The position numbers and the translations under genes were made by a program. A stretch of 64,000 bases of DNA from assembly GCF_009707485.1 (NCBI RefSeq), contig NZ_CP046121.1:2108001-2172000 (forward strand). The letters run 5' to 3'. Source of the stretch: Nostocoides sp. HKS02. Its GTDB lineage: Bacteria > Actinomycetota > Actinomycetes > Actinomycetales > Dermatophilaceae. Positions 1,424 to 63,343 of this stretch are shown piece after piece; the first letter of the stretch is position 1, and each line of letters starts with the position of its first letter. Below the pieces are notes generated by a model, which was not told where the DNA came from, did not search any database, and saw only the letters and a list, made by a program, of their open reading frames with translations.

Positions 1424-2334
1424 CGCTGTACCCCGTCGATGATCCCGGTATGCCGCGGGCCGCCCCGCCGACCGGCGGCCAGCTCACCGCTGGACGGGTC
1501 GACCAGGGCGAACCCTTCCCGGCCGGGCAGCCGAGCCGCGATGTCGTTGGACAGCGCGTAGGTCAGGCCGTCCTGCGCGACCGTGACCTGCGTGCGGTGC
1601 TCACGCAGGGCCTGGGCCTGGACGGGGACCAGTTCGGGGGCGAGGAGCTCGTGCGTCACGAAGCCATCGTCGACCACGGATGGCGGGTACTCGCCGTCGG
1701 GGTGAGGAAGGTCCCACCGCGGGTCGACGGGGTGCGCGGCCAGCCACGCGCGGTCCGCGCGCGCCCACGAGCGCGGGGTGAGCACGGCATACAGCGGGGG
1801 GCGGTCCTGCGACAGCGCGGCCAGCGCCGCGCAGGTGACCCGGTGGGCCTGGATGTGGTCGGGGTGGCCATAGCCGCCGTAGCGGTCGTAGGTCACCACG
1901 GCGACGGGTCGCAGCCGCCGGATCACCTCGCCGACGAGCTCAGCCGCCTCGGCGACGTCGGCGTTGACGAAGGCCGCGGGGTGGGCCGCGCTCGCCGTAC
2001 CGGCCATGCCCGAGTCGCGGTAGCGCGCCAGTACGCCTGCGTCCGGGCGCTCGCCCAGCACCTCGTGCTGCACCCCGAGCACGGCCATGGCGCGGCGCAG
2101 CTCCTCACGCCGGTGGGGCCCGAGCGCGTCGTCGTGCGCCGAGTCGAGGTGGGCCAGCTCCGCCGGGATGACCTCGCCCTCGTCACCGAGGGTGCAGGTG
2201 AGCAGGTGGACCGGGTGCCCCGCGCGGGCGTAGTGGGCCATCGTCAGCCCGGTCGTGAGCGTCTCGTCGTCGGGATGGGCGTGGACGAACACCAACGGCT
2301 GCTGCGCCGGGCCCGCCGCGCCCTCGCTGGTCAC
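1420..2334 (-). CDS. mshB: N-acetyl-1-D-myo-inositol-2-amino-2-deoxy-glucopyranoside deacetylase (mycothiol synthesis)
   Basis: A 304-residue LmbE/PIG-L deacetylase. The HPDDE motif at residues 20-24 supplies the zinc His and Asp ligands plus the catalytic Asp, and YGGYGHPDH (about 152-160) carries the second metal His. MshB removes acetyl from GlcNAc-inositol, the second step to mycothiol, the cytoplasmic thiol of actinobacteria. The GTG start at 2334 overlaps the stop of the upstream lipoprotein gene (GTGA), although an open frame runs further upstream. A GTATGCCG octamer lies in its C-terminal codons. Mycothiol S-conjugate amidase is the closest alternative family; length and motifs fit MshB better. 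Confidence 0.88.
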   Translation of the reverse strand: MTSEGAAGPAQQPLVFVHAHPDDETLTTGLTMAHYARAGHPVHLLTCTLGDEGEVIPAELAHLDSAHDDALGPHRREELRRAMAVLGVQHEVLGERPDAGVLARYRDSGMAGTASAAHPAAFVNADVAEAAELVGEVIRRLRPVAVVTYDRYGGYGHPDHIQAHRVTCAALAALSQDRPPLYAVLTPRSWARADRAWLAAHPVDPRWDLPHPDGEYPPSVVDDGFVTHELLAPELVPVQAQALREHRTQVTVAQDGLTYALSNDIAARLPGREGFALVDPSSGELAAGRRGGPRHTGIIDGVQR

Positions 2335-4052
2335 CCGACCCCGATCGCCGCGAGGTCGACGAACCCGCCCAACGCCTCGTTGGCGCCAAAGCGCGTCACG
2401 GCGCTGCCCGCGACGTAGAGCGACTTGTGTTGGGCGAGCGCGACGAACACGGCGCGCCGGGCGAGCGACGCGTCGAGGTCCGCCCACGCGGGCGCCTGGT
2501 CGTCGAGGCTGGGGAGGGACTGGATATGGGTGATTGTCGCGTTGACCTTGGCATCGGTGAAGCCGCCGAAGTCCCGCCCGGTGCCGCTGCCGGTGAGGTT
2601 GAGGCGGCTGTCGAACAACGGGGGGATCACGGTGGACGCCGAGGGCCAGGCAGGTGCCCAGTTCGCCCAGAACACGTCCGTCTTCGCGAGCTGGGCGGGT
2701 GCGGAGATCGTCTCGAAGTAGTTCTTGGCGATGGGCTGGAGCTTGACGGAGAAGCCGGCATCCTGCCAGCCGTTGCTCAGCGCGGCCATCGCCTTGTCGG
2801 CGGTGGGGGTCGACCGGTAGGCCACCCGCACGGTGACCGGCAGCGTGAGCCCGGACTTCTGCAGCGCGGTGCGGGCCGCGGCGGCGTCTCCGGCGGACCC
2901 GGCCCCCAGCGGGTCGTCGGAGCGGTGGCCCGGCAGGGTGGGACCGATCAAGGAGTATGCCGCCGAGGCGGCGCTGGCGCCGCCGAGGGCCGCGACATAG
3001 CTGTCGCGGTTCGTCGCGAGCGCGAGGGCGGTCCGGACGTCGGGGTTCTTCATGACGCCACGCTCGACGTTGGGCGCGAGGTAGTCGACGAACTGCGAGG
3101 AGGGATTGACCGACCGCGCCCTGAGGCCCGGGTCGGAGAGGACGTGCTGTTGCATCGCCGGTGGCGCCGAGTCGAGCGTCACCGCGGCGGTGTTCTCGCT
3201 CTGGTTGTTGATGACCGCTTGCACGGCGGTCTGCGACTCGGTGCCCTGGACATAGTGGATGGAGTCGGGCAACGCCTTGCGAATCGGGTCAGATGCCTTG
3301 TCCCACTTGGCGTTTCGCACGAAGGTGCCACCGGCGCTGGAGTCCCAGGGCTCCTTGAGGAGGTAGGGGCCGCTGCTGAACACGGCATACGTGCCGGCCT
3401 TGCCCTTGTCCGCGGACTTCTTCATTGGGGCGAACACGGGCATGGCGAGCGCCTCGCTGAAGTCCGCCATCGGCGCGGCGAGCCGGAAGGTGATGGTGGA
3501 GCCGCTGCACGACACGGCCTTGTCGAACGCCGCCTGGCCCGAAGCGTCGGACGGCCCGGTGAACGTCGTCGAGCCGTCGGCCTTGCGCGGGAGGTCAAGG
3601 TAGGCCAACGGGTAGGTGAGCCCTTCGCTGGCGAAGGGTTGGGCGAACGATCTCGCGATGCCGTAGCGGACGTCCTCGCAGGTGATGGGCGAGCCGTCCT
3701 GCCACGAGATCCCCTTGCGGAGCGTGAAGCGCCAGACCTTCAAGGTCGAGTCGGGACTGCCGGCGTCGGTCGCGAGATCGCCGACGACGTGCCGCTGGGC
3801 GGTCGCGTCACGACCTGGCGGAAAAGCCGTGAGGGTGCGCAGGAAGGTCCGGCCCGCGAACGCGATGTCCTGCGGGGTGGACAGCCGTTGCGGGTCCCAG
3901 GTCGTGACGGGCCCGAGGGACAGCACCGTCAGCTCGCCTCGGGGCCCCGAGGACTGGGTAGTGCCAGGAGAGCTGCTGCACGCGGCGGCGACCAGCGTCG
4001 TGAGGACGCCGGCCACCGCGACGGCAGCGCGCACGCGGCGGGAGTTTCGCAC
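2331..4052 (-). CDS. ABC transporter family 5 substrate-binding lipoprotein (peptide type)
   Basis: A 573-residue secreted binding protein. Residues 1-25 form a lipoprotein signal peptide (basic end, hydrophobic stretch, lipobox ending AAAC with Cys25), so it should be anchored to the outer face of the membrane. The rest matches the SBP_bac_5 (DppA/OppA) fold, for example TWDPQRLSTPQD near the start and LRKGISWQDGSPITCEDVRYG around residue 120. No permease or ATPase is adjacent; it sits between typA (19 bp upstream) and mshB (4-base overlap). The ligand is unknown. It resembles but is not identical to the binding protein at 7716-9494. Confidence 0.85.
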   Translation of the reverse strand: MRNSRRVRAAVAVAGVLTTLVAAACSSSPGTTQSSGPRGELTVLSLGPVTTWDPQRLSTPQDIAFAGRTFLRTLTAFPPGRDATAQRHVVGDLATDAGSPDSTLKVWRFTLRKGISWQDGSPITCEDVRYGIARSFAQPFASEGLTYPLAYLDLPRKADGSTTFTGPSDASGQAAFDKAVSCSGSTITFRLAAPMADFSEALAMPVFAPMKKSADKGKAGTYAVFSSGPYLLKEPWDSSAGGTFVRNAKWDKASDPIRKALPDSIHYVQGTESQTAVQAVINNQSENTAAVTLDSAPPAMQQHVLSDPGLRARSVNPSSQFVDYLAPNVERGVMKNPDVRTALALATNRDSYVAALGGASAASAAYSLIGPTLPGHRSDDPLGAGSAGDAAAARTALQKSGLTLPVTVRVAYRSTPTADKAMAALSNGWQDAGFSVKLQPIAKNYFETISAPAQLAKTDVFWANWAPAWPSASTVIPPLFDSRLNLTGSGTGRDFGGFTDAKVNATITHIQSLPSLDDQAPAWADLDASLARRAVFVALAQHKSLYVAGSAVTRFGANEALGGFVDLAAIGVG

Positions 4053-4071
4053 GAGTCGCCCGCCCCGCCGC

Positions 4072-5955
4072 TCAGGCGTTGCGCGCCCGAGAAGCCGCGC
4101 GGGCGCGCAGGGTCTGGTCGAGCTCGACCTTGCGGATGCGCACGGCCTCCGGGGTCACCTCGACGCACTCGTCCTCGCGGCAGAACTCGAGGGACTGCTC
4201 GAGGCTGAGCTTGCGAGGAGGCACGATCTTCTCGAAGTTGTCGGAGGAGGAGGCGCGCACGTTGGTGAGCTTCTTCTCCTTGGTGATGTTGACGTCCATG
4301 TCGTCGGCGCGGGAGTTCTCGCCGATGATCATGCCCTCGTAGACCTCGGTGGTGGGCTCGACGAACAGCGTGCCGCGCTCCTGGAGGTTGACCATGGCGT
4401 ATGCCGTGACGACCCCGGTGCGGTCGGACACGAGCGAGCCGCTGGTCCGGGTGGTGATGGTGCCGTACCAGGGCTCGTAGTCCTCGAACACGTGGTGGGC
4501 GATGCCGGTGCCGCGGGTCTCGGTGAGGAACTCGGTGCGGAAGCCGATGAGACCGCGCGAGGGCACGAGGAACTCCATCCGGATCCACCCGGTGCCGTGG
4601 TTGGTCATCTGCTCCATCCGGCCCTTGCGAGCCGCGAGGATCTGGGTGATCGGGCCGAGGAACTCCTCGGGGGTGTCGATGGTGAGCCGCTCGACGGGCT
4701 CGTGGGTCTTGCCGTCGACCTCACGCGTGACGACCTGCGGCTTGCCGACGGTGAGCTCGTAGCCCTCGCGCTTCATCTGCTCGACGAGGATCGCGAGCGC
4801 CAGCTCACCACGGCCCTGGACCTCCCAGGCGTCCGGGCGCTCGGTGGTCAGCACGCGGAGCGAGACGTTGCCGACGAGCTCCTTGTCGAGGCGGTCCTTG
4901 ACCATGCGGGCGGTGACCTTCGAGCCACGCACGCGACCCACCATGGGGCTGGTGTTCGTGCCGATGGTCATGGAGATGGCCGGCTCGTCGACGGTGATGA
5001 CGGGCAGCGGGATCGGGTTCTCGGCGTCGGCCAAGGTCTCGCCGATCATGATCTCGGGGATGCCGGCGATGGCGATGATGTCGCCGGGGCCGGCCGACTC
5101 GGCGGGCTTGCGCTCGAGCGCCTCGGTCATCAGCAGCTCGGTGATCTTGACGCGCTCGACGGTGCCGTCGACCTTGCACCAGGCGACGTGCTGGCCCTTG
5201 CGGATCGTGCCGTTGTGCACGCGCAGGAGGGCCAGGCGGCCGAGGAAGTTGGAGGCGTCGAGGTTGGTGACGTGGGCCTGCAGCGGGGCCTCGTCGTCGT
5301 AGACCGGCGCGGGGATCGTCGACAGGATCGTCTCGAAGAGCGCCTCGAGGTCCTCGGCGTCCGGCAGGCCGCCGTTCTCGGGGCGGTTCATCGACGCGCG
5401 GCCGTTCTTGGCCGAGGCGTACACGATCGGGAACTCGATCTGGTGCTCGTCGGCGTCGAGGTCCATGAAGAGCTCGTAGACCTCGTCGACGACCTCGGCG
5501 ATGCGGCTGTCAGGACGGTCGACCTTGTTGATGCACAGCACGACCGGCATCTTGGCCGCGAGCGCCTTGCGCAGCACGAACCGGGTCTGCGGGAGCGGGC
5601 CCTCGGACGCGTCCACCAGCAGGACGACACCGTCGACCATGCTCAGGCCGCGCTCGACCTCGCCACCGAAGTCGGCGTGACCGGGGGTGTCGATGATGTT
5701 GATCGTCGCCCCGTCGGGCAGACCCGCCTCGGCGGCCGCCTTCCCGGCGTAGTGGATCGCGGTGTTCTTCGCGAGGATCGTGATCCCCTTCTCGCGCTCC
5801 AGGTCACCGGAGTCCATCGCCCGCTCGTCGACGTGCTGGTGCTCGCCGAACGCACCGGCCTGCCAGAGCATCTTGTCGACCAGCGTGGTCTTTCCGTGGT
5901 CGACGTGGGCAACGATGGCGACATTGCGGATGTCACCGCGGGTCTTCATAGGCAT
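4072..5955 (-). CDS. typA: Translational GTPase TypA/BipA
   Basis: A 627-residue ribosome-associated GTPase. The G domain is intact: P-loop AHVDHGKTT (residues 16-24), switch region [14 protein letters not shown] and NKVDRPD. It is followed by EF-G-like domain II and the TypA-specific C-terminal domain. It acts in ribosome assembly and stress or cold adaptation. Three in-frame ATGs lie at 5964, 5955 and 5949, none with a clear Shine-Dalgarno; I chose the middle one. It heads the typA > lipoprotein > mshB > flavin reductase > VanW unit. Confidence 0.93.
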
Positions 5956-6019: not shown

Positions 6020-6478
6020 TCAGGTGAGGTGCGTGGCCACCAGGTCGACGATGGGCAGATCGGCCGGCAGCCACGGCACGGCATACAGGTCGTTCAGCGA
6101 CAGCCAGCGCAGCTCGTCGTGGTCCTCGAGCGGCGCGGGCTCGCCGTCGGTGACCACCGCCCAGCGGACCGTCATGGCGTACCGGTCCCCCAGCGGCCAG
6201 CGGTCACCCGCCAGGGGGCCGGGAAGGCTCGCTCCGAGCACCACCTCCACACCCAGCTCCTCGCGCAGCTCACGGTGCAGCGCCTCCTGCTCCGTCTCGC
6301 CCGGGTCCACCTTGCCGCCCGGGAACTCCCACCCGCCCGACAGCGCGGGGGGCTCGGTCCGGCGCGCGGCCAGCAGCCGTGTCGGGCGCACGAGGTCGTC
6401 GACGATCGCGGCGCCGACCACCGCCGTCCGCGCGGCTCGTGGACCGTGCTGGTGTGCGTCGGGATCAGGGGTTGTCAC
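6020..6478 (-). CDS. Nudix hydrolase, MutT-like (8-oxo-dGTP diphosphatase type)
   Basis: A 152-residue Nudix protein with a complete Nudix box: GGKVDPGETEQEALHRELRE followed by ELGVEV, giving the metal-binding REXXEE core. The short single-domain layout matches MutT-type (d)NTP pyrophosphohydrolases that clear oxidised nucleotides, but specificity cannot be read from sequence. The GTG start at 6478 has AAAGGA seven bases upstream, which decides against a longer open frame. It is convergent to nothing nearby, lies just upstream of typA on the same strand, and diverges from the peptide importer operon. Confidence 0.85.
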   Translation of the reverse strand: MTTPDPDAHQHGPRAARTAVVGAAIVDDLVRPTRLLAARRTEPPALSGGWEFPGGKVDPGETEQEALHRELREELGVEVVLGASLPGPLAGDRWPLGDRYAMTVRWAVVTDGEPAPLEDHDELRWLSLNDLYAVPWLPADLPIVDLVATHLT

Positions 6479-7715: not shown

Positions 7716-9494
7716 ATGAAAACAAAGAAACTGATGGGCGTCACCAGCATGATCGCTGTGGCCGCCCTCGGCTTGAGCGCGTGCGCGGGAAGCTCCAGCA
7801 ACCCGGGCACAGGTGGCTCCTCCTCGAGCGGCGGCACCACCAAGGCCTCGTTCAACGCCGCGCTCAACGCTGTCTACAACCCGTCCACGAAGACGGGGGG
7901 CACGCTGAAGTTCGCGGACGACGCGCAGCCCGACAGCACCGACCCTGGTGACACCTACTACGGGTACATGTGGGACTTCATCCGGCTGTACGGCCGGTCC
8001 CTCACGATGTTCAAGGTGGTGCCCGGCCAGGCGAGCTCTGAGCTGGTCGGCGACCTGGCCGTGGGCAAGGGCACCTCGCCCGACAGCGGCAAGACCTGGA
8101 CCTACAAGCTGCGCTCGGGCCTGAAGTTCGAGGACGGCACCCCGATCACGTCCAAGGACGTGAAGTATGCCGTCGAGCGCCAGTACGACAAGACGGTCTT
8201 CCCCGATGGGCCGACCTACCTCAACGACATGCTCAACTGGCCGGCCGGCTACAAGGGCGTCTACCAGTCCAAGGGTGTGAACACCGACTCGGCGATCACC
8301 ACGCCCGACGACCTGACGATCACCTTCCACCTCAAGACGGCGTTCTCCGGCTTCGACTACGTCGCCATGACGCCTCAGGTGATGCCTGTGGAGCAGGCGA
8401 AGGACACGGGTGCGAAGTACAAGGAGCACCCGATCTCCTCCGGTCCGTACATGTTCAAGGAGGGCTCCTACGTCGAGGGCAAGGGCTACACGCTGGTCCG
8501 CAACCCGAACTGGAGCAAGGCGACCGACCCGAACCGCCCGGCGCTCGTCGACGAGATCGACATGCAGTTCAACCAGAACGCCGAGGACATCGACAACCGG
8601 ATCATCGCCGGCGACCTCGACGTGCACGTGACCGGAACGGGTGTCACCTCGGCCACGCAGAGCCGGGTCCTCACGACGCCTGACCTCAAGGCCCGCGCGG
8701 ACAACCCGACCATCGCGCGCCTGTGGTACGTCTCGATCCCCAGCACGGTCAAGCCGTTCGACAACAAGGACTGCCGCATCGCCGTCCAGTACGCGATGGA
8801 CCGCACGTCGTACCAGACCGCCTACGGTGGCCAGTTCACCGGTGGCCAGCTGGCGACCACGCTGCTGCCCCCGATCATCCCGGGTTACCAGAAGTTCGAC
8901 CTCTACCCGACCCCGGACAACAAGGGTGACGTGACGAAGGCCAAGGCCGCGCTCGCCAAGTGCGGCAAGCCGAACGGCTTCACGACCAACATGGGCTACC
9001 GCGCCGAGCGGCCGAAGGAGAAGGCTGTCGCCGAGGCCTTCCAGCAGGCGCTTGCCAAGGTCGGCATCACGGTCAACCTCAAGGGCTACCCGAAGAAGGA
9101 CTACTTCTCGACCTACTGCGGCAACCCGCCGTACGTCGTGAAGAACGACCTCGGTCTGTGCGTCAACGGCTGGGGCGCCGACTGGAACGACGGTTACGGC
9201 TTCCTCGCCCAGATCGTCGACTCTCGGGTCATCCGGGACACGGGCGGCTCGTCCAACATCTCGGTGCGCAACCCTGCGGTGGACAAGCTGCTCGACCAGG
9301 CTCAGAACGAGCTGGACGTCACCAAGCGCAACGCCATCTGGGGCCAGATCGACAAGCTGGTCATGGAGGACGCCACGGTCTACCCGGGCGTCTACGCCAA
9401 CGCACTCCTGTTGCGCGGCAAGAACCTGACCAACGTGTTCATCAACCAGCAGTTCGGCTACTACGACTACGTGGCCCTCGGCAAGTCGTCCTAG
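7716..9494 (+). CDS. Peptide ABC transporter substrate-binding lipoprotein
   Basis: A 592-residue DppA/OppA-type binding protein. It has a lipoprotein signal (MKTKKLMG..., lipobox LSAC at residues 22-25), then a Gly/Ser-rich linker to about residue 45. SBP_bac_5 features follow, such as KLRSGLKFEDGTPITSKDVK. The ATG at 7716 has AGAAGGG upstream, which supports it over the open frame extending to 7671. It is the second gene of the importer operon. A perfect 13-bp hairpin follows its stop and may set a higher mRNA level for the binding protein than for the membrane components. Confidence 0.92.
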   Translation: MKTKKLMGVTSMIAVAALGLSACAGSSSNPGTGGSSSSGGTTKASFNAALNAVYNPSTKTGGTLKFADDAQPDSTDPGDTYYGYMWDFIRLYGRSLTMFKVVPGQASSELVGDLAVGKGTSPDSGKTWTYKLRSGLKFEDGTPITSKDVKYAVERQYDKTVFPDGPTYLNDMLNWPAGYKGVYQSKGVNTDSAITTPDDLTITFHLKTAFSGFDYVAMTPQVMPVEQAKDTGAKYKEHPISSGPYMFKEGSYVEGKGYTLVRNPNWSKATDPNRPALVDEIDMQFNQNAEDIDNRIIAGDLDVHVTGTGVTSATQSRVLTTPDLKARADNPTIARLWYVSIPSTVKPFDNKDCRIAVQYAMDRTSYQTAYGGQFTGGQLATTLLPPIIPGYQKFDLYPTPDNKGDVTKAKAALAKCGKPNGFTTNMGYRAERPKEKAVAEAFQQALAKVGITVNLKGYPKKDYFSTYCGNPPYVVKNDLGLCVNGWGADWNDGYGFLAQIVDSRVIRDTGGSSNISVRNPAVDKLLDQAQNELDVTKRNAIWGQIDKLVMEDATVYPGVYANALLLRGKNLTNVFINQQFGYYDYVALGKSS

Positions 9495-9580: not shown

Positions 9581-10594
9581 GTGATCACCTACATCATCCG
9601 GCGACTGCTGGCCGCGATCGGCCTGCTGATGGTCGTCACGATCATCACGTTCGCGATCTTCTACCTCCTGCCCCGGCTTGCCGGCGCCTCGGCGGAGACC
9701 CTGGCGGCCCGCTACGTCGGACGGTCCGCCACCGCCCAGACGGTGCACCTCATGGCGCAGAACCTTGGCTTCTACGACCCGATCTGGGTCCAGTACTGGC
9801 ACTGGCTGCGCGGCATCTTCACGGGCGTCGACTACAACATCGGCACCGGCATCGACCACTGCCCGGCTCCGTGCCTGGGCTACTCCTTCCAGACCAAGAG
9901 CCCGGTGCTGCCCGACATCCTGCGGGTGACCCCGGTGACGTTCTCGCTGGCCATTGGTGCCGCCGTCATCTGGTTGGTCGTCGGAGTGGCTACCGGTGTT
10001 CTCTCGGCCCTGCGCCGAGGGACCTTCTTCGACCGTTTCGCCATGACGATCTCCCTCGCCGGCGTCTCGCTCCCCATCTACTGGACCGGCCTGATGGTGC
10101 TGGCCTTCTTCGCCTACCAATGGGGCCTCATCCCGCCGGGCGGCAGCTACACGCCGATCACCCAGAACCCCCTGCTGTGGGCCAGTGACCTCTTGGCACC
10201 GTGGATCACCCTGGCGTTCCTCTTCTCTGCCCAGTACGCGCGCCTGACCCGCGCGGGCATGCTCGAGACCATGAACGAGGACTACGTGCGCACGGCGCGC
10301 GCCAAGGGGCTCTCGGAGCGCACCGTGGTCCTCAAGCACGGGCTCCGTGCGGCGCTGACCCCCATCCTGACCATCTTCGGGCTCGACCTGGGCCTGCTGC
10401 TCGGCGGTGCGGTACTCACCGAGACCGCCTTCAACCTCGATGGCCTGGGTCACTACGCGATCCTCGCGATCGGTGATGAGGACCTACCGCGCATCCTGGG
10501 CGTCGTCCTCGTCGCCTCGGTGTTCGTGGTCCTCGCGAACCTGATCGTTGACCTGTTGTATGCCGTCGTCGACCCGAGAGTGCGTGTCCAGTGA
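9581..10594 (+). CDS. Peptide/nickel ABC transporter permease, DppB-like
   Basis: About 337 residues from the GTG at 9581, which gives the family-typical N-terminus VITYIIRRLLAAIG. An in-frame GTG at 9539 would start inside the intergenic hairpin and is less likely. Six membrane helices are evident, with a long periplasmic loop after the first, and the EAA loop reads RTARAKGLSERTVVLKHGL. It pairs with the DppC-like permease to form the channel. Its stop overlaps the next start (GTGA). Confidence 0.9.
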   Translation: MITYIIRRLLAAIGLLMVVTIITFAIFYLLPRLAGASAETLAARYVGRSATAQTVHLMAQNLGFYDPIWVQYWHWLRGIFTGVDYNIGTGIDHCPAPCLGYSFQTKSPVLPDILRVTPVTFSLAIGAAVIWLVVGVATGVLSALRRGTFFDRFAMTISLAGVSLPIYWTGLMVLAFFAYQWGLIPPGGSYTPITQNPLLWASDLLAPWITLAFLFSAQYARLTRAGMLETMNEDYVRTARAKGLSERTVVLKHGLRAALTPILTIFGLDLGLLLGGAVLTETAFNLDGLGHYAILAIGDEDLPRILGVVLVASVFVVLANLIVDLLYAVVDPRVRVQ

Positions 10595-11613
10595 GCGAAC
10601 CCTTCCTCGACGTGCGGGACCTGCGCGTCGCCTTCCAGACCATGGACGGACTGGTCAAGTCCGTCGACGGACTGTCCTTCCAGCTCCAGCGCGGCAAGAC
10701 CCTCGGCATCGTCGGCGAGTCCGGCTCGGGCAAGAGCGTGACGAGCCTGTCCATCATGGGTCTGCACCACGGTGACAACGCCCGCATCACGGGCGAGATC
10801 CTGCTCGATGGGACCGACCTCGTCGGTGCCACTCCCGAGCAGGTCCGGTCGCTGCGCGGCAAGAAGATGGCGATGATCTTCCAGGACCCGCTGTCCGCGA
10901 TGCACCCCTTCTACACCGTCGGCCATCAGATCGTCGAGGCCTACCGGGTGCACAACGACGTCTCCAAGTCGGTGGCCCGAAAGCACGCGATCGACATGCT
11001 CGACCGCGTCGGCATCCCTCAGCCGAACTCGCGGGTCGACGACTACCCGCACCAGTTCTCCGGCGGGATGCGGCAACGAGCGATGATCGCGATGGCGCTG
11101 TCCTGCGACCCCGACCTGCTGATCGCCGACGAGCCGACGACCGCCCTCGACGTCACGGTCCAGGCGCAGATCCTCGACCTGATCAGGGACCTGCAGAAGG
11201 AGTTCAACTCCGCGGTCATCATCATCACGCACGACCTCGGCGTCGTCGCCGAGCTGGCCGACGACATCCTGGTCATGTATGCCGGCCGGTCCATGGAGTA
11301 CGCCTCCGGCCACGAGGTCTTCGAGCGTCCCCAGCACCCCTACACCTGGGGCCTGCTGGGCTCGATGCCCCGGATGGACCGAGAGCGCACCGAGCGCCTG
11401 ATCCCCATCAAGGGCTCGCCCCCGAGCCTGATCAACGTGCCCAGCGGCTGCCCGTTCCACCCCCGCTGCGCCTTCGAGGGCCGGACCAACGGACTGGCTC
11501 GCACCGAGCGTCCTCCGTTCGAGGAGGTGCTGCCCGGCCACTTCGTCGCGTGCCACCTGACCGACGAGGAACGCCGCCAGATCTGGGAGTCTGAGATCCG
11601 GCCGAAGCTGTGA
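10591..11613 (+). CDS. Peptide ABC transporter ATP-binding protein, DppD-like
   Basis: A 340-residue ABC ATPase with Walker A GESGSGKS (about residues 44-51), signature FSGGMRQR, Walker [13 protein letters not shown] and an H-loop (ITHDLG). The C-terminal OppD/F extension includes CPFHPRCAF; related extensions in this family can carry a 4Fe-4S cluster, but only two of the Cys are obvious here. The GTG start is coupled by a four-base overlap to the permease gene. It energises the importer together with the next gene. Confidence 0.92.
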
Positions 11614-11665: not shown

Positions 11666-12730
11666 GTGAACCTGACGACCGAGACCACCGACTCGTCCAC
11701 TCAACCGCGGACCGACGCACTCTTGTCGGTGACCGGCCTGACCAAGCACTTCCCGATCCGGCGTGGCCTGCTGCAGCGCCAGGTCGGCGCCGTGCAGGCG
11801 GTGGACGGGCTGACCTTCGACGTCGCCCGGGGCGAGACGCTGTCGCTGGTCGGCGAGTCCGGCTGTGGAAAGACCACCACCGGCCGCATGCTGACCCGGC
11901 TCATCGAGCCCACCGGCGGACGCATCCTCTTCGAGGACCGGGACATCACGCACCTGTCGACCGCAGACATGCGACCACTGCGCCGAGACGTGCAGATGAT
12001 CTTCCAGGACCCGTACGGCTCCCTGAACCCGCGGCATACGGTCGGCACGATCGTCGGCGCCCCGTTCCGCATCCAGAAGGTCAAGACCGAGCACGGCACC
12101 AAGCGCGCGGTCCAGGACCTGCTCGAGCTGGTCGGGCTCAACCCCGAGCACTACAACCGCTACCCGCACGAGTTCTCCGGCGGTCAGCGGCAACGCATCG
12201 GCATCGCTCGCTCGCTCGCTCTGCGACCCAAGCTCATCGTGGCGGACGAGCCGGTGTCGGCCCTCGACGTGTCGATCCAGGCCCAGGTGATCAACCTGCT
12301 CGAGGACCTCCAGAACGAGTTCGGCCTCACCTATGTCGTCATCGCCCACGACCTGTCGGTCGTGCGCCACATGTCGGACCGGGTGGCCGTGATGTACCTC
12401 GGGAAGATGGTCGAGCTCGCCGACCGCGACGAGCTCTACAGCCGTCCGATGCACCCGTACACGACCGCGCTGATGTCCGCCGTGCCGATCCCCGACACCG
12501 GTCGCCGGACCAGCCGCGAGCGCATCCGGCTCACCGGTGACGTCCCCAGCCCGATCAACCCGCCCCCGGCCTGCCGCTTCCACACGCGCTGCTGGAAGGC
12601 CCAGGAGGTCTGCAAGACCCAGGAGCCGCCGCTGGTCGAGCTCGCCCCCGGGCACCGGGTGGCCTGCCACTTCCCCGAGAACGCCACCACGCCGGCCGCC
12701 ACCACGCCGGCGGCCACCGCCCCCCAGTGA
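11666..12730 (+). CDS. Peptide ABC transporter ATP-binding protein, DppF-like
   Basis: A 354-residue ABC ATPase with Walker [10 protein letters not shown], signature [10 protein letters not shown], Walker [13 protein letters not shown] and H-loop IAHDLS. The OppD/F C-terminal domain ([14 protein letters not shown]) is present, and the last ~15 residues are a low-complexity Ala/Thr/Pro repeat. The GTG start has GGGAG upstream. It is the last gene of the importer operon, 52 bp after the DppD-like gene. Confidence 0.92.
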
Positions 12731-13871: not shown

Positions 13872-14729
13872 ATGAACCTCCGCCGCACCGTGGCGATCCT
13901 CGGCCTGACCACCGCGATGGTCTCGGGCGGCGCGCTCGCCGCCAACGCGATCACCGGAGGGCAGGCCGACGGTGGCGGCCACCCCAACGTCGGCATGATC
14001 GGGTACTACGACGCCTCGGGCCGGCAGCGCTGCAGCGCGACCCTCGTGTCGCCGACCATCGTGCTGACCGCGGGGCACTGCGCCGACGGCACGATCGGCA
14101 AGACCGCGGTGTCGTTCGACTCGGTCATCGCCCAGGACCCGTCGTCGTCGCTGCCGCCGGCGGCGGACCCGACCGTGGGCTACACCGCCGCCGAGCTGGC
14201 GGCCGACGGCTGGCGCAGCGGCACGGCATACGCCCACCCGGCGTACTCGCACTTCACGGACAAGGACAGCTGGAACGACGTGGGAGTGGTCGTCCTCGAC
14301 CAGCCGGTCACCGACATCACCCCGGTGTCGCTCGCGCCGGTGGGCTACCTCGACCAGTTCACCCCGAGTGTCCTGAACTCGACGCTCTTCACGGCCGTCG
14401 GTTACGGCGTCGACGTGACCAGGGCCGACTCCGGCCCCCAGAACCCGACGCCGCAGTCCTACCCGATCCTGCGTCGCGTCGCCGATGCCCCGGGCCAGAA
14501 GCTCACCTCGCAGATCCTGCAGGTCAACGGCAGCAGCAACGACTCCAAGGGCACCGGTGGCATCTGCTTCGGCGACTCGGGCGGTCCGTCGTTCAACGGC
14601 GGCTACCAGGTCGGCGTCGCGAGCTACACCTACAGCTCGACCTGTCGTTCGATCGACGGTCTGCAGCGGGTCGACATCCCCGTTGTGCAGGACTGGCTGG
14701 CCGGCTTCGGGGTGTACCCCGCGAGCTGA
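13872..14729 (+). CDS. Secreted trypsin-like serine protease
   Basis: A 285-residue protein with a Sec signal peptide (MNLRRTVAILG... to about ALAANA, residues 1-27). The S1 catalytic triad is visible: His in TAGHC, Asp in NDVGVVVLD, Ser in GDSGGP. It lacks the long propeptide of alpha-lytic-type enzymes; ITGG just after the signal resembles a mature trypsin N-terminus (IxGG). It should act outside the cell. The ATG at 13872 is preceded by GGGAGC. An open frame extends upstream but would remove the signal peptide. Confidence 0.9.
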   Translation: MNLRRTVAILGLTTAMVSGGALAANAITGGQADGGGHPNVGMIGYYDASGRQRCSATLVSPTIVLTAGHCADGTIGKTAVSFDSVIAQDPSSSLPPAADPTVGYTAAELAADGWRSGTAYAHPAYSHFTDKDSWNDVGVVVLDQPVTDITPVSLAPVGYLDQFTPSVLNSTLFTAVGYGVDVTRADSGPQNPTPQSYPILRRVADAPGQKLTSQILQVNGSSNDSKGTGGICFGDSGGPSFNGGYQVGVASYTYSSTCRSIDGLQRVDIPVVQDWLAGFGVYPAS

Positions 14730-14950: not shown

Positions 14951-15048
14951 GGCTCCACCGTGGTGGACGGCCCTGCCACCGAGGTATGCCGTGGCTGTGC
15001 ACTCCCTGTGGGCGTGGGCCACGTCTGCGCGCACCGACGCCGAGGGTG

Positions 15049-16007: not shown

Positions 16008-17051
16008 GTGAGTCCCCGCCGAATACCCGTTGCCGCGCTGTGCGGATGGGGCGGCTTGACGATGGCGGTGATGCTTGGGGCAGCTGGTACGGGCCTGAGC
16101 GGCGCGGTGACCGCCATCGCCATGTTCGGCTTCGTCATCGGCGTGATCGGTCTGCTCCGAGGTCGGGTCCGGTGGGCCCACCTGCGCAGCCGAACCGCGG
16201 CAGCCGCCACCCTGGCGGGTTCCCTGGCGGCCTTCACCCTGGCCGCCGTGGCCGCCCCGGCACCGCCCACCCCCGCCACCACGGCCAGCCCCGCAGCAGC
16301 TTCCCGGGCCCCTGCCCGGAGCCGACCGGCAGCGTCCGCGAGCGCGGGCACGAGCACAGCCGCGAGCCCGTCCGCGACCAACCCGCCGCAGCCTAGCCAC
16401 GTCCCGGCCGCGGCCCGGGTTATCCCAGCGGCCGCCGGTGACACCGTCAACGCTGCCGGCGCGGTCCTGCCGAACGCGGCACGGACCCCAGGAGCCGTCA
16501 ACCCCGCAGTCACCCAGGCCACCATCAGGAGCACGATCTGCGTGGCCGGCTGGACCGCCACTGTGCGGCCGCCCTCCTCGGTGACGACCCGACTCAAGAT
16601 CCAGCAGCTCGCCAGCGGCTACGCCTACAAGGGCGACACCACCACCGGCGACTACGAAGAAGACCACCTGATCTCTCTCGAGCTCGGCGGCTCCCCCGCA
16701 GCCACCGCGAACCTGTGGCCAGAGCCGTACGCCACCGCCGAGGGCGCCCGGGTCAAGGACCGCGTGGAGAACACGCTCCACACCCTGGTCTGCAACCACA
16801 CCATCACCCTGGCGACGGCCCAACACGCCATCGCCACCAACTGGTGGATTGCCTACCGGACCTACGTCACCGCGGCGACCTCCCCGACCACACCGGCGCC
16901 GCCCCGCGTCCCAGCTCCGGCGCCGGCTCCTGCACCAGTCGTGCCCGGGAACGGGGCGACCGCGTTGTGCAACGACGGCACCTACTCGTATGCCGCCCAC
17001 CACCGAGGCGCCTGCTCACACCACGGCGGCGTCCGAGTGTTCTACACGTAG
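16008..17051 (+). CDS. Predicted secreted protein with HNH-like motif and C-terminal DUF3761 domain
   Basis: About 347 residues from GTG 16008. Two N-terminal hydrophobic helices (about 8-45) and a third (about 60-85) are followed by a long Ala/Pro/Ser/Thr-rich linker (about 85-160). A domain with YEEDHLISLELGG and NLWPE (about 225-250) matches the His/Asn pattern of HNH-like nucleases. After another Pro-rich linker, the C-terminus CNDGTYSYAAHHRGACSHHGG is the DUF3761 signature. A membrane-anchored or exported nuclease-like protein is an inference; no substrate or partner is known. GTG was chosen because upstream codons give no hydrophobic N-terminus. Confidence 0.7.
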   Translation: MSPRRIPVAALCGWGGLTMAVMLGAAGTGLSGAVTAIAMFGFVIGVIGLLRGRVRWAHLRSRTAAAATLAGSLAAFTLAAVAAPAPPTPATTASPAAASRAPARSRPAASASAGTSTAASPSATNPPQPSHVPAAARVIPAAAGDTVNAAGAVLPNAARTPGAVNPAVTQATIRSTICVAGWTATVRPPSSVTTRLKIQQLASGYAYKGDTTTGDYEEDHLISLELGGSPAATANLWPEPYATAEGARVKDRVENTLHTLVCNHTITLATAQHAIATNWWIAYRTYVTAATSPTTPAPPRVPAPAPAPAPVVPGNGATALCNDGTYSYAAHHRGACSHHGGVRVFYT

Positions 17052-17073: not shown

Positions 17074-18159
17074 TCACACGTTGAAACGGAACTCCACGAC
17101 GTCGCCGTCGGCCATGACGTACTCCTTGCCCTCGATCCGCACCTTGCCCGCCGCCTTGGCTGCCGCCATGGACCCGGCCGCGACGAGGTCGTCGAAGGAC
17201 ACGATCTCGGCCTTGATGAACCCACGCTGGAAGTCGGTGTGGATCACCCCAGCAGCCTGGGGGGCGGTCCAGCCCTGGCCGATGGTCCAGGCCCGCGACT
17301 CCTTGGGGCCGGCAGTCAGGTAGGTCTGGAGGCCGAGGGTGTGGAAGCCCGTGCGCGCCAGCTGGTCGAGCCCCGACTCGGTGGCGCCGAACGACTCGAG
17401 GAGCTCCATCGCCTCGGCCGGCTCCATGTCCATGAGGTCCATCTCGAGCTTGGCGTTGAGGAACACCGCATCGGCCGGTTCGACGAGCTGGCGCAGCGAG
17501 GCGTGCAGATCGGCGTCGGAGAGCTGGTCCTCGTCGAGGTTGAAGACGTAGATGAAGGGCTTCGTGGTCAGCAGGCCCAGGCCCCGCGCGAGGTCAAGGT
17601 CGACCCCGGCAGCCGCGCCCGCGGCATACAGGGTGTGTCCTTCGTCGAGGACCTTCTGCGCGGCCACCGCGTTGTCGAGGATCGGCTTGGACTCCTTCTT
17701 GATCCGCGCCTCCTTCTCCAGGCGGGGCACGGCCTTCTCGAGGGTCTGCAGGTCGGCGAGGATGAGCTCGGTGTGGATGGTCTCGATGTCGGACGCCGGC
17801 GAGACCTTGCCGTCGACGTGCACGACGTCGCCGTCCTCGAACGCGCGCACCACCTGGCAGATCGCGTCGGCCTCACGGATGGTGGCGAGGAACTTGTTGC
17901 CCAGCCCCTCGCCCACCGACGCACCCCGGACGATGCCCGCGATGTCGACGAACGAGACGGTCGCCGGCAGGATCTTCTCGGACCCGAAGATCTCGGCAAG
18001 GGCGCCCAGCCGCGCATCCGGCAGGGGAACGACCCCGACGTTCGGCTCGATGGTCGCGAACGGGTAGTTCGCGGCGAGCACGTTGTTCTTGGTCAGGGCG
18101 TTGAACATCGTGGACTTGCCGACATTGGGCAGTCCGACGATTCCGATAGTGAGAGCCAC
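17074..18159 (-). CDS. ychF: Redox-regulated ATPase YchF (Obg family)
   Basis: A 361-residue P-loop protein with Walker A GIVGLPNVGKST at the N-terminus, the switch/G3 region FVDIAGIVRGASVGEGLGN and a C-terminal TGS domain (about residues 275-361). YchF binds ATP rather than GTP, associates with ribosomes and affects translation accuracy and oxidative stress response. The length matches the family. It ends 22 bp from the converging DUF3761 gene. Confidence 0.95.
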   Translation of the reverse strand: MALTIGIVGLPNVGKSTMFNALTKNNVLAANYPFATIEPNVGVVPLPDARLGALAEIFGSEKILPATVSFVDIAGIVRGASVGEGLGNKFLATIREADAICQVVRAFEDGDVVHVDGKVSPASDIETIHTELILADLQTLEKAVPRLEKEARIKKESKPILDNAVAAQKVLDEGHTLYAAGAAAGVDLDLARGLGLLTTKPFIYVFNLDEDQLSDADLHASLRQLVEPADAVFLNAKLEMDLMDMEPAEAMELLESFGATESGLDQLARTGFHTLGLQTYLTAGPKESRAWTIGQGWTAPQAAGVIHTDFQRGFIKAEIVSFDDLVAAGSMAAAKAAGKVRIEGKEYVMADGDVVEFRFNV

Positions 18160-19024: not shown

Positions 19025-19081
19025 CCGGCCAGTCTGGCTCACGGCGGCGCCGGACACGCGGCATACGTGGTCAGCTTCACC

Positions 19082-26514: not shown

Positions 26515-28248
<1,734 letters not shown>

Positions 28249-30564: not shown

Positions 30565-30588
30565 GGTATGCCGGGTGGCCGGCGAGCA

Positions 30589-39745: not shown

Positions 39746-39781
39746 CGTCGAGCAGGTATGCCGTGAGGCTGCCCGCCTGGG

Positions 39782-41735: not shown

Positions 41736-41767
41736 GGTATGCCGCGTGGTCGCCCACGCGGCATACC
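41736..41767 (-). terminator. Perfect 14-bp hairpin between rpsD and rpoA built from inverted GTATGCCG octamers
   Basis: The arms 41736-41749 (GGTATGCCGCGTGG) and 41754-41767 pair fully around TCGC. It lies eight bases past the rpsD stop. Both arms carry the over-represented octamer. Confidence 0.75.
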
Positions 41768-46802: not shown

Positions 46803-46844
46803 GGTATGCCGCGGGCTCACCGTGAGGTGAGCCCGCGGCATACC
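46803..46844 (-). terminator. Perfect 19-bp hairpin after rplO built from inverted GTATGCCG octamers
   Basis: The arms 46803-46821 and 46826-46844 pair without mismatch around GTGA. Each arm begins or ends with the octamer. It lies 15 bp past the rplO stop and likely separates the spc ribosomal genes from secY-adk-map. Confidence 0.8.
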
Positions 46845-49857: not shown

Positions 49858-50427
49858 TCAGTTCTCCTTGAAGGGGAAGCCGAGCGCCTTCAGCAGTGCG
49901 CGGCCCTCGTCGTCGTTGGTGGCAGTGGTCACCACAGTGATGTCCATGCCACGCACGCGGTCGATCCGGTCCTGGTCGATCTCGTGGAACATCGACTGCT
50001 CGGTGAGACCGAAGGTGTAGTTGCCCTTGCCATCGAACTGCTTGGGCGACAGACCACGGAAGTCACGGATACGCGGCAGCGCCACGGACACCAGACGGTC
50101 CAGGAACTCCCACATCCGGTCGCCGCGCAGCGTGGTGTGCGCACCAATCGGCATACCCTCGCGCAGCTTGAACTGGGCGATCGACTTGCGGGCCTTGGTG
50201 ACCAGCGGCTTCTGACCGGTGATGGCCGACAGGTCGCGGATCGCGCCCTCGATGAGCTTGGCGTCCTTGGCGGCGTCACCGACACCCATGTTCACGACGA
50301 CCTTGACGACGCCAGGCACCTGCATGACGTTCTCGTAGCCGAACTGCTCCAGCAGCTGACCCTTGATCTCGTCGGCGTAGCGCGTCTTGAGACGGGGCGT
50401 CGACGTAACGGTTGCGGTTTCGGTCAT
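49858..50427 (-). CDS. rplE: 50S ribosomal protein L5
   Basis: About 189 residues with [20 protein letters not shown] and the family pattern [20 protein letters not shown] near the C-terminus. Two starts are possible: ATG 50427 (used here) and GTG 50436, which overlaps the rplX stop (GTGA). It binds 5S rRNA. One base from rpsN. Confidence 0.96.
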
Positions 50428-53721: not shown

Positions 53722-54559
53722 TCAGCGCTTCTTGCCAGTACGACGGCGGCGAACGATCAGCTTGTCGCTCGGCTTGCCGGGGCGGCGGGTGCGGCCCTCG
53801 GCCTGACCCCACGGGCTGACCGGGTGGCGACCACCGGAGGTCTTGCCCTCACCACCACCGTGCGGGTGGTCGACCGGGTTCATGGCGACACCACGGACGG
53901 TCGGGCGCTTGCCCTTCCAGCGCATGCGGCCGGCCTTGCCCCAGTTGATGTTGGACTGCTCGGCGTTGCCCACCTCGCCGACCGTGGCGCGGCAGCGCAG
54001 GTCGACGTTGCGGATCTCGCCGGACGGCATACGCAACTGTGCGTAGGGGCCGTCCTTGGCGACGAGCTGCACACGCACCCCAGCCGAGCGGGCGATCTTC
54101 GCGCCGCCGCCAGGCTTGAGCTCGACCGCGTGGATGACCGTACCGGTGGGGATGTTGCGCAGCGGCAGGCTTGTTGCCGGGCTTGATGTCGGCCCCAGCG
54201 CCGTTCTCGATGTTGGCGCCCTGCTCGAGGCCCTTGGGGGCCAGGATGTAGCGCTTCTCACCGTCGGCGTAGTGCAGCAGCGCGATGCGCGCCGTGCGGT
54301 TGGGGTCGTACTCGATGTGAGCGACCTTGGCCGGCACGCCGTCCTTGTCATGACGACGGAAGTCGATGACGCGGTAGGCGCGCTTGTGGCCACCACCGAT
54401 GTGGCGGGTCGTGATGCGCCCGTTGCTGTTGCGGCCGCCGGACTTGGTCAGTGGACGGACCAGCGACTTCTCCGGCGTGGTGCGCGTGACCTCGACGAAG
54501 TCAGCGACGCTGGAGCCGCGGCGACCAGGCGTCGTCGGCTTGTATTTACGGATACCCAT
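53722..54559 (-). CDS. rplB: 50S ribosomal protein L2, frameshifted in this sequence
   Basis: Joining two frames gives 278 residues, the normal L2 length. The first frame runs [20 protein letters not shown] to ADIKPGN, the second from [20 protein letters not shown] through the peptidyl-transferase-region motif [17 protein letters not shown] to the end. The break is near 54170, where GGCAACAAGCCTGCC has one base too many. L2 is essential, and both halves are otherwise perfectly conserved, so a sequence error is by far the best explanation. Confidence 0.93.
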
Positions 54560-55654: not shown

Positions 55655-55659
55655 CTGGC

Positions 55660-56310: not shown

Positions 56311-56320
56311 TTCGTCAGCC

Positions 56321-56629: not shown

Positions 56630-57064
56630 CTCCGTTACGTCTCTCTCTCGCCGAACACTTAGCTTGTAGCCGTCTCTGCTGCCATCCGACCCCCGAGGTC
56701 GGGTGTGTCGCACCCGCTTCGCGGCCCGACGACATGCGCTTCCACGCTCGTCGTTCGGATCGGTTGGCCCGGCAGAGCCGGGGCTTGCGCTTCCCTGGAG
56801 TGTCGCCCCGCCCCGTGATTCGGGCGGTTCGAGGTGTGGCACCGGGGTGGCGGCAACGACCATGTTTTCCAGACAGGCCATCGCCGCGCGTCAAGCAACC
56901 GCTCTAGTGTGCCAGAGGCTCGGGCGACCTACCAAATCGGGCCGGGAGCACCCGGCATACCGGCGTTGGTGGCGCGTCGCGGGAGCCGCGCCGCCCGCGC
57001 GCGTATGCCGGGTCAGGGCGACCGATGCCCGCCACCGGCCGCCCGCACACGGCAGGATGCGTTC
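56630..57064. promoter_or_regulatory. 435-bp regulatory gap between rpsJ and the FMN oxidase gene
   Basis: No gene is supported. It holds the predicted rpsJ promoter at 56906-56935, a probable long S10 leader, and two GTATGCCG octamers in opposite orientation (56953-56960 and 57003-57010). It must also carry the promoter of the divergent oxidase gene, which I could not place. Confidence 0.5.
56906..56935 (-). promoter_or_regulatory. Predicted rpsJ (S10 cluster) promoter
   Basis: On the minus strand the -35 TTGGTA (56930-56935), in CCGATTTGGTA, is 18 bp from a -10-like CACACT (56906-56911). The ten-base CCGATTTGGT is identical to that before rpsL, and both begin about 300 bp from their start codons. 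The -10 is weak. Confidence 0.55.
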
Positions 57065-58376: not shown

Positions 58377-58437
58377 GGGCGGCATACGGAAGGGCGGCAT
58401 ACGGAAGGGCGGCATACGGAAGGGGCGACATACGGAA
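58377..58437. repeat. Four tandem 15-bp repeats, each with a GTATGCCG-type octamer
   Basis: Three identical GGGCGGCATACGGAA units (58377-58421) and a fourth, 16-bp variant with GACATAC, sit directly before the tuf terminator hairpin. The first three units contain CGGCATAC, the complement of the octamer. Confidence 0.8.
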
Positions 58438-62003: not shown

Positions 62004-62046
62004 CTCGGTATGCCGCGTGCGCGCGGGGCGCACGCGGCATACCGAG
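62004..62046 (-). terminator. Perfect 19-bp hairpin between rpsG and fusA built from inverted GTATGCCG octamers
   Basis: The arms 62004-62022 and 62028-62046 pair fully around a five-base loop, seven bases past the rpsG stop. Both arms contain the octamer. It probably reduces read-through from rpsL-rpsG into fusA. Confidence 0.78.
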
Positions 62047-62897: not shown

Positions 62898-63172
62898 CCT
62901 GTTCTCCGTACGTTGTCGTTGTCGGTGCCCTCGGGCCGCGGTGCGGCCGGCTCGGGCACTCCTTGGTGTGGTGCCCCTGCCGACCCCCGCACTCGGGTGT
63001 GTCGTCAGTGGCGCTCTCCCCTGCACCACCCACGCGCGATCCTGAGGACTCCAGGGATCGGTGGTGGGTTGCCCGGCGAGAGGTGGTGCTGGCTGCGGTG
63101 GCCGACGATCGCGGACGATGATCGGTGCCGACTCCAGCGGCGTGCCCGAGCAGACCTCAGGCACAGTGTTCA

Positions 63173-63201
63173 AAGATACCGCCTGCACAGTGGGCCACCA
63201 A
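63173..63201 (-). promoter_or_regulatory. Predicted rpsL (str operon) promoter
   Basis: On the minus strand the -35 TTGGTG (63196-63201), in CCGATTTGGTG, is 17 bp from the -10 TATCTT (63173-63178). Same element as before rpsJ, rplM and infA. Confidence 0.65.
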
Positions 63202-63343
63202 ATCGGTTCGGCCTTCGCAGACGTAGTCATCCTTCACAACAACGCTGCCCCGTCGGGTATGCCGCCACCTGCCTTCCGGTCGATCGGGCCACGGGGGCTC
63301 GATGACCGTCCCCGTGCCGAGGACACGATGCAGGGGGACGGCT

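What the first reader, a model, noticed from the sequence alone, without database searches (positions are those of the whole stretch)
1448..63264. A strongly over-represented octamer, GTATGCCG, spread through the whole window
I counted 48 copies (24 per strand) in 64 kb, about one per 1.3 kb. With ~70 % GC and independent bases, roughly 2-3 are expected. Every GTATGCC I found was followed by G, so the unit is at least eight bases, with C or T next in 41 of 48. Equal numbers on both strands argue against a replication-polarised signal such as KOPS or Chi. Density, strand balance, intergenic enrichment (18 of 48 copies in ~8 % of the DNA) and use in terminator stems all resemble DNA uptake sequences of Neisseria and Pasteurellaceae. 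I know of no such system described in actinobacteria. Other readings: a methylation or restriction motif, or a protein-binding site.
Basis: partly seen in the sequence, partly recalled or inferred. Interest (0 to 1): 0.9.

Follow-up and report, generated by a model that had tools for sequence, protein, structure and literature searches.

The report
Self-DNA uptake word in actinobacteria
An actinobacterium and many of its relatives carry thousands of copies of one eight-letter DNA word, spelled differently in different genera, that looks like the 'take up DNA of my own kind' tags described in two families of Gram-negative bacteria.

Summary
GTATGCCG occurs 48 times in the window (0.9 expected) and 2537 times in the 3.48-Mb genome; in 522 kb it occurs 393 times against 4.1 expected. 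At least 600 copies occur in 30 of 48 sampled genomes of the family; genomes of other families hold at most 167 (30 of the order) and 386 (144 of the class). Some genera use other spellings at that scale: GGATGCCG, GTATGACG, GTATGCGG; 14 of 48 show none of the four. One conserved hairpin carries the local spelling in both arms. ComEA-like and ComEC genes are adjacent in 40 of 40 family genomes examined, with or without the word; a type IV pilin signature is nearly absent. Best reading: an independently evolved DNA-uptake-sequence system, probably with a Tad/Flp pilus; function is inferred and the receptor unknown. Unexpected: same-strand copies avoid each other within about 1.5 kb, opposite-strand copies do not, in three genomes and two spellings, so recognition or selection may act on one strand. 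No actinobacterial case was found in the literature searched.

The parts
1448..1455 (+). GTATGCCG copy
1785..1792 (-). GTATGCCG copy
2955..2962 (+). GTATGCCG copy
3383..3390 (-). GTATGCCG copy
4399..4406 (+). GTATGCCG copy
6079..6086 (-). GTATGCCG copy
8165..8172 (+). GTATGCCG copy
10558..10565 (+). GTATGCCG copy
11277..11284 (+). GTATGCCG copy
12032..12039 (-). GTATGCCG copy
14224..14231 (-). GTATGCCG copy
14984..14991 (+). GTATGCCG copy
16988..16995 (+). GTATGCCG copy
17622..17629 (-). GTATGCCG copy
19059..19116 (.). tail-to-tail pair of copies (19059-, 19109+) in one foldable stretch
19681..19688 (+). GTATGCCG copy
22480..22487 (-). GTATGCCG copy
26106..26113 (+). GTATGCCG copy
27105..27112 (-). 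GTATGCCG copy
27816..27823 (+). GTATGCCG copy
29228..29235 (-). GTATGCCG copy
30566..30573 (+). GTATGCCG copy
31972..31979 (-). GTATGCCG copy
33104..33111 (+). GTATGCCG copy
34919..34926 (-). GTATGCCG copy
35599..35606 (+). GTATGCCG copy
35795..35802 (-). GTATGCCG copy
38052..38059 (+). GTATGCCG copy
38675..38719 (.). tail-to-tail pair of copies (38675-, 38712+), inside a called gene
39756..39763 (+). GTATGCCG copy
41737..41766 (.). head-to-head pair forming a 13-bp-stem hairpin between the genes read as rpsD and rpoA; in relatives this site carries the local dialect in both arms
43989..43996 (+). GTATGCCG copy
44357..44364 (-). GTATGCCG copy
46804..46843 (.). head-to-head pair forming an 18-bp-stem hairpin between called genes 45391-46704 and 46860-47351
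50149..50156 (-). GTATGCCG copy
54025..54032 (-). GTATGCCG copy
56953..57010 (.). tail-to-tail pair of copies (56953-, 57003+)
58380..58417 (-). three copies (58380, 58395, 58410) in a 15-bp tandem repeat
62008..62042 (.). head-to-head pair forming a 15-bp-stem hairpin
63257..63264 (+). GTATGCCG copy

Best explanation
GTATGCCG is the DNA uptake sequence (self-DNA tag) of this actinobacterium and its relatives. Free DNA is captured and passed to ComEA and ComEC, whose genes lie side by side; the capturing filament is most likely the Tad/Flp pilus whose genes are present. Fragments carrying the family word are taken up or processed better. Over many rounds of transformation and recombination this bias builds up the word (molecular drive) until each strand has one about every 2-2.5 kb. 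A change of receptor specificity then moves a whole genome to a new spelling, and loss of specificity lets the word decay. Shown: over-representation, strand symmetry, dialects, patchy absence, hairpin pairs, ComEA-like/ComEC and Tad genes, strand-autonomous spacing. Inferred: that transformation happens, that the word raises it, that a receptor exists, and which protein it is.
For: 2537 copies genome-wide against 159 for the reversed word; 393 against 4.1 expected in 522 kb. At least 600 copies in 30 of 48 family genomes; at most 167 in 30 genomes of other families of the order and at most 386 (7.5 Mb, reversed control 176) in 144 non-family genomes of the class, 3 of which were also. Dialects: GGATGCCG 3816 in G026 and 3949 in G036; GTATGACG 1954 in G037 and 1557 in G013; GTATGCGG 1204 in G030. 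The rpsD-rpoA hairpin has two GTATGCCG arms in the window and 8 relatives, two GGATGCCG arms in 2, two GTATGCGG arms in 1 (of 23 relatives resolved). GTATGCCG occurs in both deep clades of a LeuS tree of 36 family genomes, with at least 8 changes between word and none as coded. ComEA-like and ComEC hits adjacent in 40 of 40 family genomes examined; a Tad cluster in 17 genomes looked at. Five blocks under 64% GC hold 2 copies against 9.4 expected. 256 of 312 genic copies fall in the Tyr-Ala or Ala-Tyr frames. Tad/Flp genes are required for transformation in the actinobacterium Micrococcus luteus (PMC4322843, passages).
Against: No uptake data. Import genes are also present in genomes without the word, and no gene tracking the word was found. 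ComEC of the own genome is split between two frames, and three word-rich family genomes gave no ComEC match: G039, G042 and G043 (58, 81 and 95% complete, all in hundreds of contigs). One-mismatch copies are only mildly in excess (388 against 253). The word-less label is not clearly clustered on the LeuS tree (63 of 500 shuffles as low). Strand-autonomous spacing is not predicted by orientation-blind uptake as reported for H. influenzae (PMC1939737, passages).
Confidence: 0.7

Rival explanations
1. A one-strand methylation or strand-tagging signal (for example a Type III, BREX-like or orphan methyltransferase mark used for repair or self-marking). Each strand would need its own copies at regular spacing, and specificity changes would give dialects.
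For: Strand-autonomous spacing fits a mark that counts per strand; non-palindromic words are typical of one-strand methylation (recall).
Against: PF00145 methyltransferases occur in 20 of 35 and PF01555 in 17 of 35 family genomes without following the word: word-rich G017, G031, G032 and G044 have neither. Other methyltransferase families and actual methylation were not tested. A roughly 100-fold over-representation of an octamer through methylation alone is not known to me (recall).
Confidence: 0.1
2. A chromosome-organisation or nucleoid-protein site, or another intracellular DNA-binding site, spaced evenly along each strand.
For: Even per-strand spacing (CV 0.60-0.72 in the own genome); dialects could follow a changing binding protein.
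Against: Repeated absence inside one family (at least 8 changes as coded) is hard to square with a housekeeping role; orientation-specific redundancy has no obvious reason.
Confidence: 0.08
3. A polar recombination hotspot such as Chi for AdnAB or RecBCD, or a KOPS-like segregation signal.
For: Octamer length, orientation dependence and change of spelling between genera.
Against: Local strand balance: difference per stretch 1.38 against 3.17 by chance, and copies alternate. Chi and KOPS are skewed along each replichore and Chi enrichment is usually far lower (both recall).
Confidence: 0.05
4. A conversion or short-patch repair bias that turns near-matches into GTATGCCG without function (HIP1-like ratchet).
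For: Single near-matches are few next to the word.
Against: Near-matches together are not depleted (388 against 253 expected); a repair bias predicts neither per-strand spacing nor inverted hairpin pairs; HIP1 is palindromic and tied to methyltransferases (PMC4390886, listing abstract and passages).
Confidence: 0.05

Closest known systems
DNA uptake sequence (DUS) of Neisseriaceae with receptor ComP
   Same: Short non-palindromic word at about one per kb, inverted pairs in hairpins, dialects with a shared core, family members without it (PMC3630211 and PMC2397512, passages).
   Different: Different word; Gram-positive high-GC host; type IV pilin signature PF07963 in only 1 of 35 family genomes, so no sign of a ComP-type receptor; spacing is strand-autonomous, which the passages read do not report for DUS.
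Uptake signal sequence (USS) of Pasteurellaceae
   Same: Short word at about one per kb, no orientation bias round the chromosome, terminator pairs (PMC7811141 and PMC1939737, passages).
   Different: Unrelated sequence and phylum; H. influenzae uptake is reported as independent of USS orientation; Pasteurellaceae USS show an intragenic position bias (PMC2346458, part 1 of 3) that is not seen here.
HIP1 of cyanobacteria
   Same: Highly iterated octamer spread through whole genomes, with exceptional variants (PMC4390886, listing abstract and passages).
   Different: HIP1 is a palindrome linked to methyltransferases; this word is not a palindrome and the two methyltransferase families tested do not track it.
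Flp/Tad-pilus-dependent transformation of Micrococcus luteus
   Same: [quoted passage not shown] PMC4322843, passages); a similar gene order is seen here.
   Different: The terms 'uptake sequence' and 'sequence-specific' do not occur in that paper, nor 'uptake sequence' in PMC8467076.

Membership tests
DUS/USS-type uptake sequences (functional kind) | Short word over-represented genome-wide, roughly one per kb | tested here: met
   2537 in 3.48 Mb; 393 against 4.1 expected in 522 kb
DUS/USS-type uptake sequences (functional kind) | Both strands used, without replichore bias | tested here: met
   Mean difference per stretch 1.38 against 3.17 by chance
DUS/USS-type uptake sequences (functional kind) | Inverted pairs in hairpins near gene ends | tested here: met
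   23 inverted pairs under 70 bp apart in the 522-kb sample, 12 of them outside called genes
DUS/USS-type uptake sequences (functional kind) | Dialects with a common core across related genera | tested here: met
   Four spellings sharing G-ATG--G
DUS/USS-type uptake sequences (functional kind) | Scarce in recently acquired DNA | tested here: inconclusive
   GC proxy only: 2 against 9.4 expected in five blocks under 64% GC
DUS/USS-type uptake sequences (functional kind) | Host carries DNA-import machinery | tested here: met
   ComEC (PF03772) in 45 of 48 family genomes; ComEA-like and ComEC adjacent in 40 of 40 examined. ComEC of the own genome is split; G039, G042, G043 gave no match
DUS/USS-type uptake sequences (functional kind) | The word raises uptake or transformation | not testable with these tools
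   Needs an assay
Neisserial DUS-ComP system | Type IV minor pilin receptor ComP | tested here: not met
   PF07963 in 1 of 35 family genomes (G035), not in the own genome
Chi/KOPS-type polar signals | Strand bias along each replichore | tested here: not met
   Local balance and alternation
HIP1 | Palindromic word | tested here: not met
   GTATGCCG is not its own reverse complement (CGGCATAC)
Restriction-modification or orphan methylation motif | A cognate methyltransferase wherever the word is | tested here: inconclusive
   PF00145 and PF01555 do not track the word; other families and methylation itself not tested

The most novel reading that the evidence does not exclude
A self-DNA recognition system that evolved in Gram-positive actinobacteria independently of ComP and USS, works through a Tad/Flp pilus or the ComEA/ComEC channel, and recognises or is selected on a single strand: each strand carries its own evenly spaced set of words, same-strand copies being redundant over about 1-1.5 kb.
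Probability: 0.35. Interest if true: 0.95.

Novelty: new variant of a known kind. Interest (0 to 1): 0.9.

Why it matters
[quoted passage not shown] A third, Gram-positive case without a ComP-type pilin would show that the trait evolved again with other machinery. The family offers several natural changes of spelling and repeated absences, so the receptor could be found by comparing sister genera. The strand rule makes a mechanistic question testable: does recognition see double- or single-stranded DNA?

Tried and rejected
Chi or KOPS: rejected on local strand balance. Methylation by PF00145 or PF01555 enzymes: no link with the word in 35 genomes. A ComP-like type IV pilin: PF07963 absent in 34 of 35 family genomes. 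ComEC or T2SSE ATPase presence as the cause: present with and without the word. Looking for a word-specific gene in 20-kb stretches round comEC (40 genomes) and in 20 Tad-search stretches (17 with the common cluster, two with another Tad type, one without a cluster): gene groups found only with the word were neighbours shared by at most 10 genomes, nothing convincing. TadE looked missing in G046 but is open in another frame. Intragenic position bias as the cause of alternation: quintiles show no end bias, and the alternation holds within genes (8 same, 52 opposite at 200-1600 bp) and between genes of either relative direction at that range. A directional reading (only head-to-head or only tail-to-tail pairs avoided): not seen, 47 head-to-head against 36 tail-to-tail at 200-800 bp. 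A first control set of 120 octamers contained the motif itself and was redone without it: of 200 controls the highest reached 74.6% opposite neighbours at 100-1600 bp against 77.9% for the word (mean 47.8, sd 6.0); over all distances the highest was 59.0% against 71.3%. The strand rule is weaker in the mixed GTATGNCG dialect sample: same-strand density 0.57-0.85 at 100-800 bp (157 copies). Orthologous-site conservation was too sparsely aligned to carry weight: identical at L013 8 of 9, L001 5 of 8, L003 5 of 6, L009 3 of 5, L018 3 of 4, L011 2 of 4, L014 2 of 5, L006 1 of 3, L010 1 of 7, L005 0 of 3 aligned sites (L015 and L017 none aligned), and 0 of 20 in five word-less loci counted.
Full report
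OBSERVATION. The window holds 48 copies of GTATGCCG, 24 per strand; dinucleotide shuffles give 0.91. It is the most over-represented octamer of the window (48 against 1.08 by an order-2 Markov model). The window is bases 2108001-2172000 of a single-contig 3,482,451-base genome with 1273 forward and 1264 reverse copies; the word read backwards gives 94 and 65. A sample of 522,001 bases (window, 20 stretches at nearly regular steps, and three chosen round com and tad genes) gives 393 copies against 4.1 expected by an order-3 Markov model with the motif masked; the other octamers among the 16 printed overlap it. The 24 one-mismatch words together number 388 against 253 expected; CTATGCCG (21 against 3.6) and GGATGCCG (111 against 44.9) contribute most of the excess, the latter being another genus's dialect. 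The flanks carry little beyond a codon-position pattern and a mild preference for C or T at base 9 and G at base 10.

WHERE IT LIES. With own gene calls, 81 of 393 copies are intergenic against 48.6 expected. Of 312 genic copies, 163 lie in the sense Tyr-Ala frame and 93 in the antisense Ala-Tyr frame. There are 23 inverted pairs under 70 bp apart, 12 of them outside called genes; in the window 41737-41766, 46804-46843 and 62008-62042 form hairpins with 13-, 18- and 15-bp stems, 8 to 16 bases after called stop codons. The ribosomal-protein genes (read from sequence) between 46843 and 56953 hold only two copies. Low-GC stretches are thin in copies: 2 against 9.4 expected in five 2.5-kb blocks under 64% GC, and 0.53 per kb in the lowest GC fifth against 0.72-0.91 in the others.

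WHO HAS IT. A genome-contig scan with the window's TruA (so read) named relatives: Phycicoccus, Knoellia, Terrabacter, Ornithinimicrobium, Humibacillus, Flexivirga and others. NCBI places Knoellia in Intrasporangiaceae, Micrococcales; that the sampled family is GTDB's Dermatophilaceae is recalled. Within the roughly 20-kb loci, GTATGCCG is the top octamer in 12 named relatives, while Phycicoccus sonneratiae, P. flavus, Janibacter melonis and Arsenicicoccus piscis have none. Of 48 sampled family genomes 30 have at least 600 copies and 18 at most 293; all 11 of the own genus are in the first group (625-3986). Thirty genomes of other families of the order have at most 167 copies. Of 148 genomes drawn from the class 4 are of the family; the other 144 (3 of them also) have at most 386 (7.5 Mb, reversed control 176). 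Reversed controls vary: G025 has 1142 copies with a control of 453, the weakest contrast among the 30.

DIALECTS. Counting all octamers blindly showed that some family members use another spelling. Genome-wide: GGATGCCG 3816 (G026), 3949 (G036) and, weakly, 1336 (G011), against 260-976 in the other 40 genomes searched. GTATGACG 1954 (G037) and 1557 (G013), beside GTATGCCG, with 319-834 in six more of 43. GTATGCGG 1204 in G030 (control 107); next highest of 37 is 459 (G028, control 312). G022 mixes GAATGCCG and GTATGCCG in its stretch (not counted genome-wide). Of the 18 genomes poor in GTATGCCG, G026, G036, G030 and weakly G011 have another spelling; 14 have none of the four words at that scale (G029, with 293 against a control of 130, is mildly raised). 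The rpsD-rpoA gap shows the change at one site (window and 26 relatives, 3 of these lacking one or both genes in the locus). Both arms are GTATGCCG in the window, L001, L003, L009, L011, L013, L014, L018 and L027; GGATGCCG in L008 and L068; GTATGCGG in L028. L005, L006, L010 and L020 have a single GTATGCCG copy. L002, L004, L007, L016, L019, L022 and L035 have none of these words (L016 has the look-alike GGATGTGG); for L032 only the first 230 of 457 bases were printed, without any. A LeuS tree of 36 family genomes has GTATGCCG in both deep clades (midpoint root) and needs at least 8 changes between word and none as I coded them; the word-less label alone is not clearly clustered (63 of 500 shuffles as low), the GTATGCCG label is (1 of 500). 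I infer that the word is ancestral in the family, with repeated loss and re-spelling.

THE STRAND RULE. Neighbouring copies alternate in orientation: 34 of 47 neighbour pairs in the window; 263 of 369 in the own sample (binomial P 1.6e-16), 278 of 392 in 440 kb of G002 (6e-17), 266 of 425 in 440 kb of G036, which uses GGATGCCG (2e-7). The cause is avoidance between same-strand copies: their pair density at 100-800 bp is 0.14-0.42 of expectation in G000, 0.21-0.46 in G002 and 0.23-0.62 in G036, and recovers beyond 1.6 kb. Opposite-strand pairs stay at 0.8-1.3 beyond 100 bp, except 0.55 at 100-200 bp in G000, and are in excess below 100 bp (1.3-2.0). Each strand alone is evenly spaced in G000 (means 2.5 and 2.6 kb, CV 0.60 and 0.72). 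The rule holds inside genes (8 same, 52 opposite at 200-1600 bp) and between genes; 200 control octamers average 47.8% opposite at 100-1600 bp (sd 6.0, highest 74.6) against 77.9%. It is seen pooled over other GTATGCCG genomes (117 same, 191 opposite) and named loci (47, 127), and more weakly in the GTATGNCG dialect (56, 96; some of these loci come from the same genomes). In a toy establishment model with one unfitted parameter setting, redundancy counted per strand gives same/opposite densities of 0.39/0.98 (100-800 bp) and 0.69/1.04 (800-1600 bp), close to the data; an orientation-blind rule gives 0.56/0.48 and 0.81/0.86. The simplest reading is that the unit on which the word acts or is selected is one strand of about 1-1.5 kb. 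Whether Neisseria and Haemophilus show this was not tested here; the passages read discuss spacing and report no orientation effect on H. influenzae uptake.

MACHINERY. ComEC (PF03772) is found in 73 of 78 relatives and 45 of 48 family genomes; the misses in the family are the fragmented G039, G042 and G043, all word-rich. In the own genome the match is split between two frames, an assembly error or a real break. A ComEA-like gene (named from its sequence, not by a family search) lies beside ComEC in 40 of 40 family stretches, 12 of them from genomes without the word; the match in G022 crosses one stop. PF00437 ATPases pass the cut-off in 77 of 78 genomes (G016 has only a weak match); PilB-like scores occur in two family genomes, G015 and G035. 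A Tad cluster with tadA, tadB and, where the stretch reaches, tadC, flp, tadE and tadF was seen in 17 genomes, including six without any of the words (G012, G018, G020, G024, G034 in part, G046); the gene names rest on sequence reading and order. PF07963 is absent from 34 of 35 family genomes. So the general import machinery is there, a ComP-type receptor is not seen, and the receptor is unknown.

INTERPRETATION. An uptake sequence explains the density, the strand symmetry, the hairpin pairs, the spellings that change across a whole genome, the repeated absence and the thinning in low-GC DNA. Methylation, Chi/KOPS, architecture and repair-bias readings each fail a test or leave features unexplained. 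Function remains inferred. In print: a search for the word's letters met 643 papers, of which the 40 listed looked incidental by title; searches for uptake sequences with actinobacteria, Gram-positives or this family and for their spacing or orientation listed no actinobacterial uptake sequence. The library lacks preprints and most subscription papers. Papers were seen as passages (PMC1939737, PMC3630211, PMC2397512, PMC7811141, PMC4322843, PMC12616744, PMC4390886, PMC5217627), as a term search without hits (PMC8467076) or as part 1 of 3 (PMC2346458).

Noticed in passing
G000:C1:1517076-1517881 (L141): ComEC of the own genome matches in two pieces in different frames, so the gene is broken or the assembly has an indel there.
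   Followed up: partly
58380-58440: A 15-bp tandem repeat (three exact units and a degenerate one) carries three copies of the word in the same orientation, against the strand rule.
   Followed up: no
G012:C17:129291-130273: GTATGCGG recurs about every 61 bp, 17 times, which looks like a CRISPR or other direct-repeat array.
   Followed up: no
46843-56953: The conserved ribosomal-protein genes hold only two copies of the word in 10 kb.
   Followed up: no
G000 sample: CTATGCCG is enriched about six-fold (21 against 3.6), a possible second, weaker spelling.
   Followed up: no
L146 (G005): Words such as GGGTCAGT and TCAGTCCG occur 14 times in 20 kb, suggesting a local repeat.
   Followed up: no
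   Followed up: no
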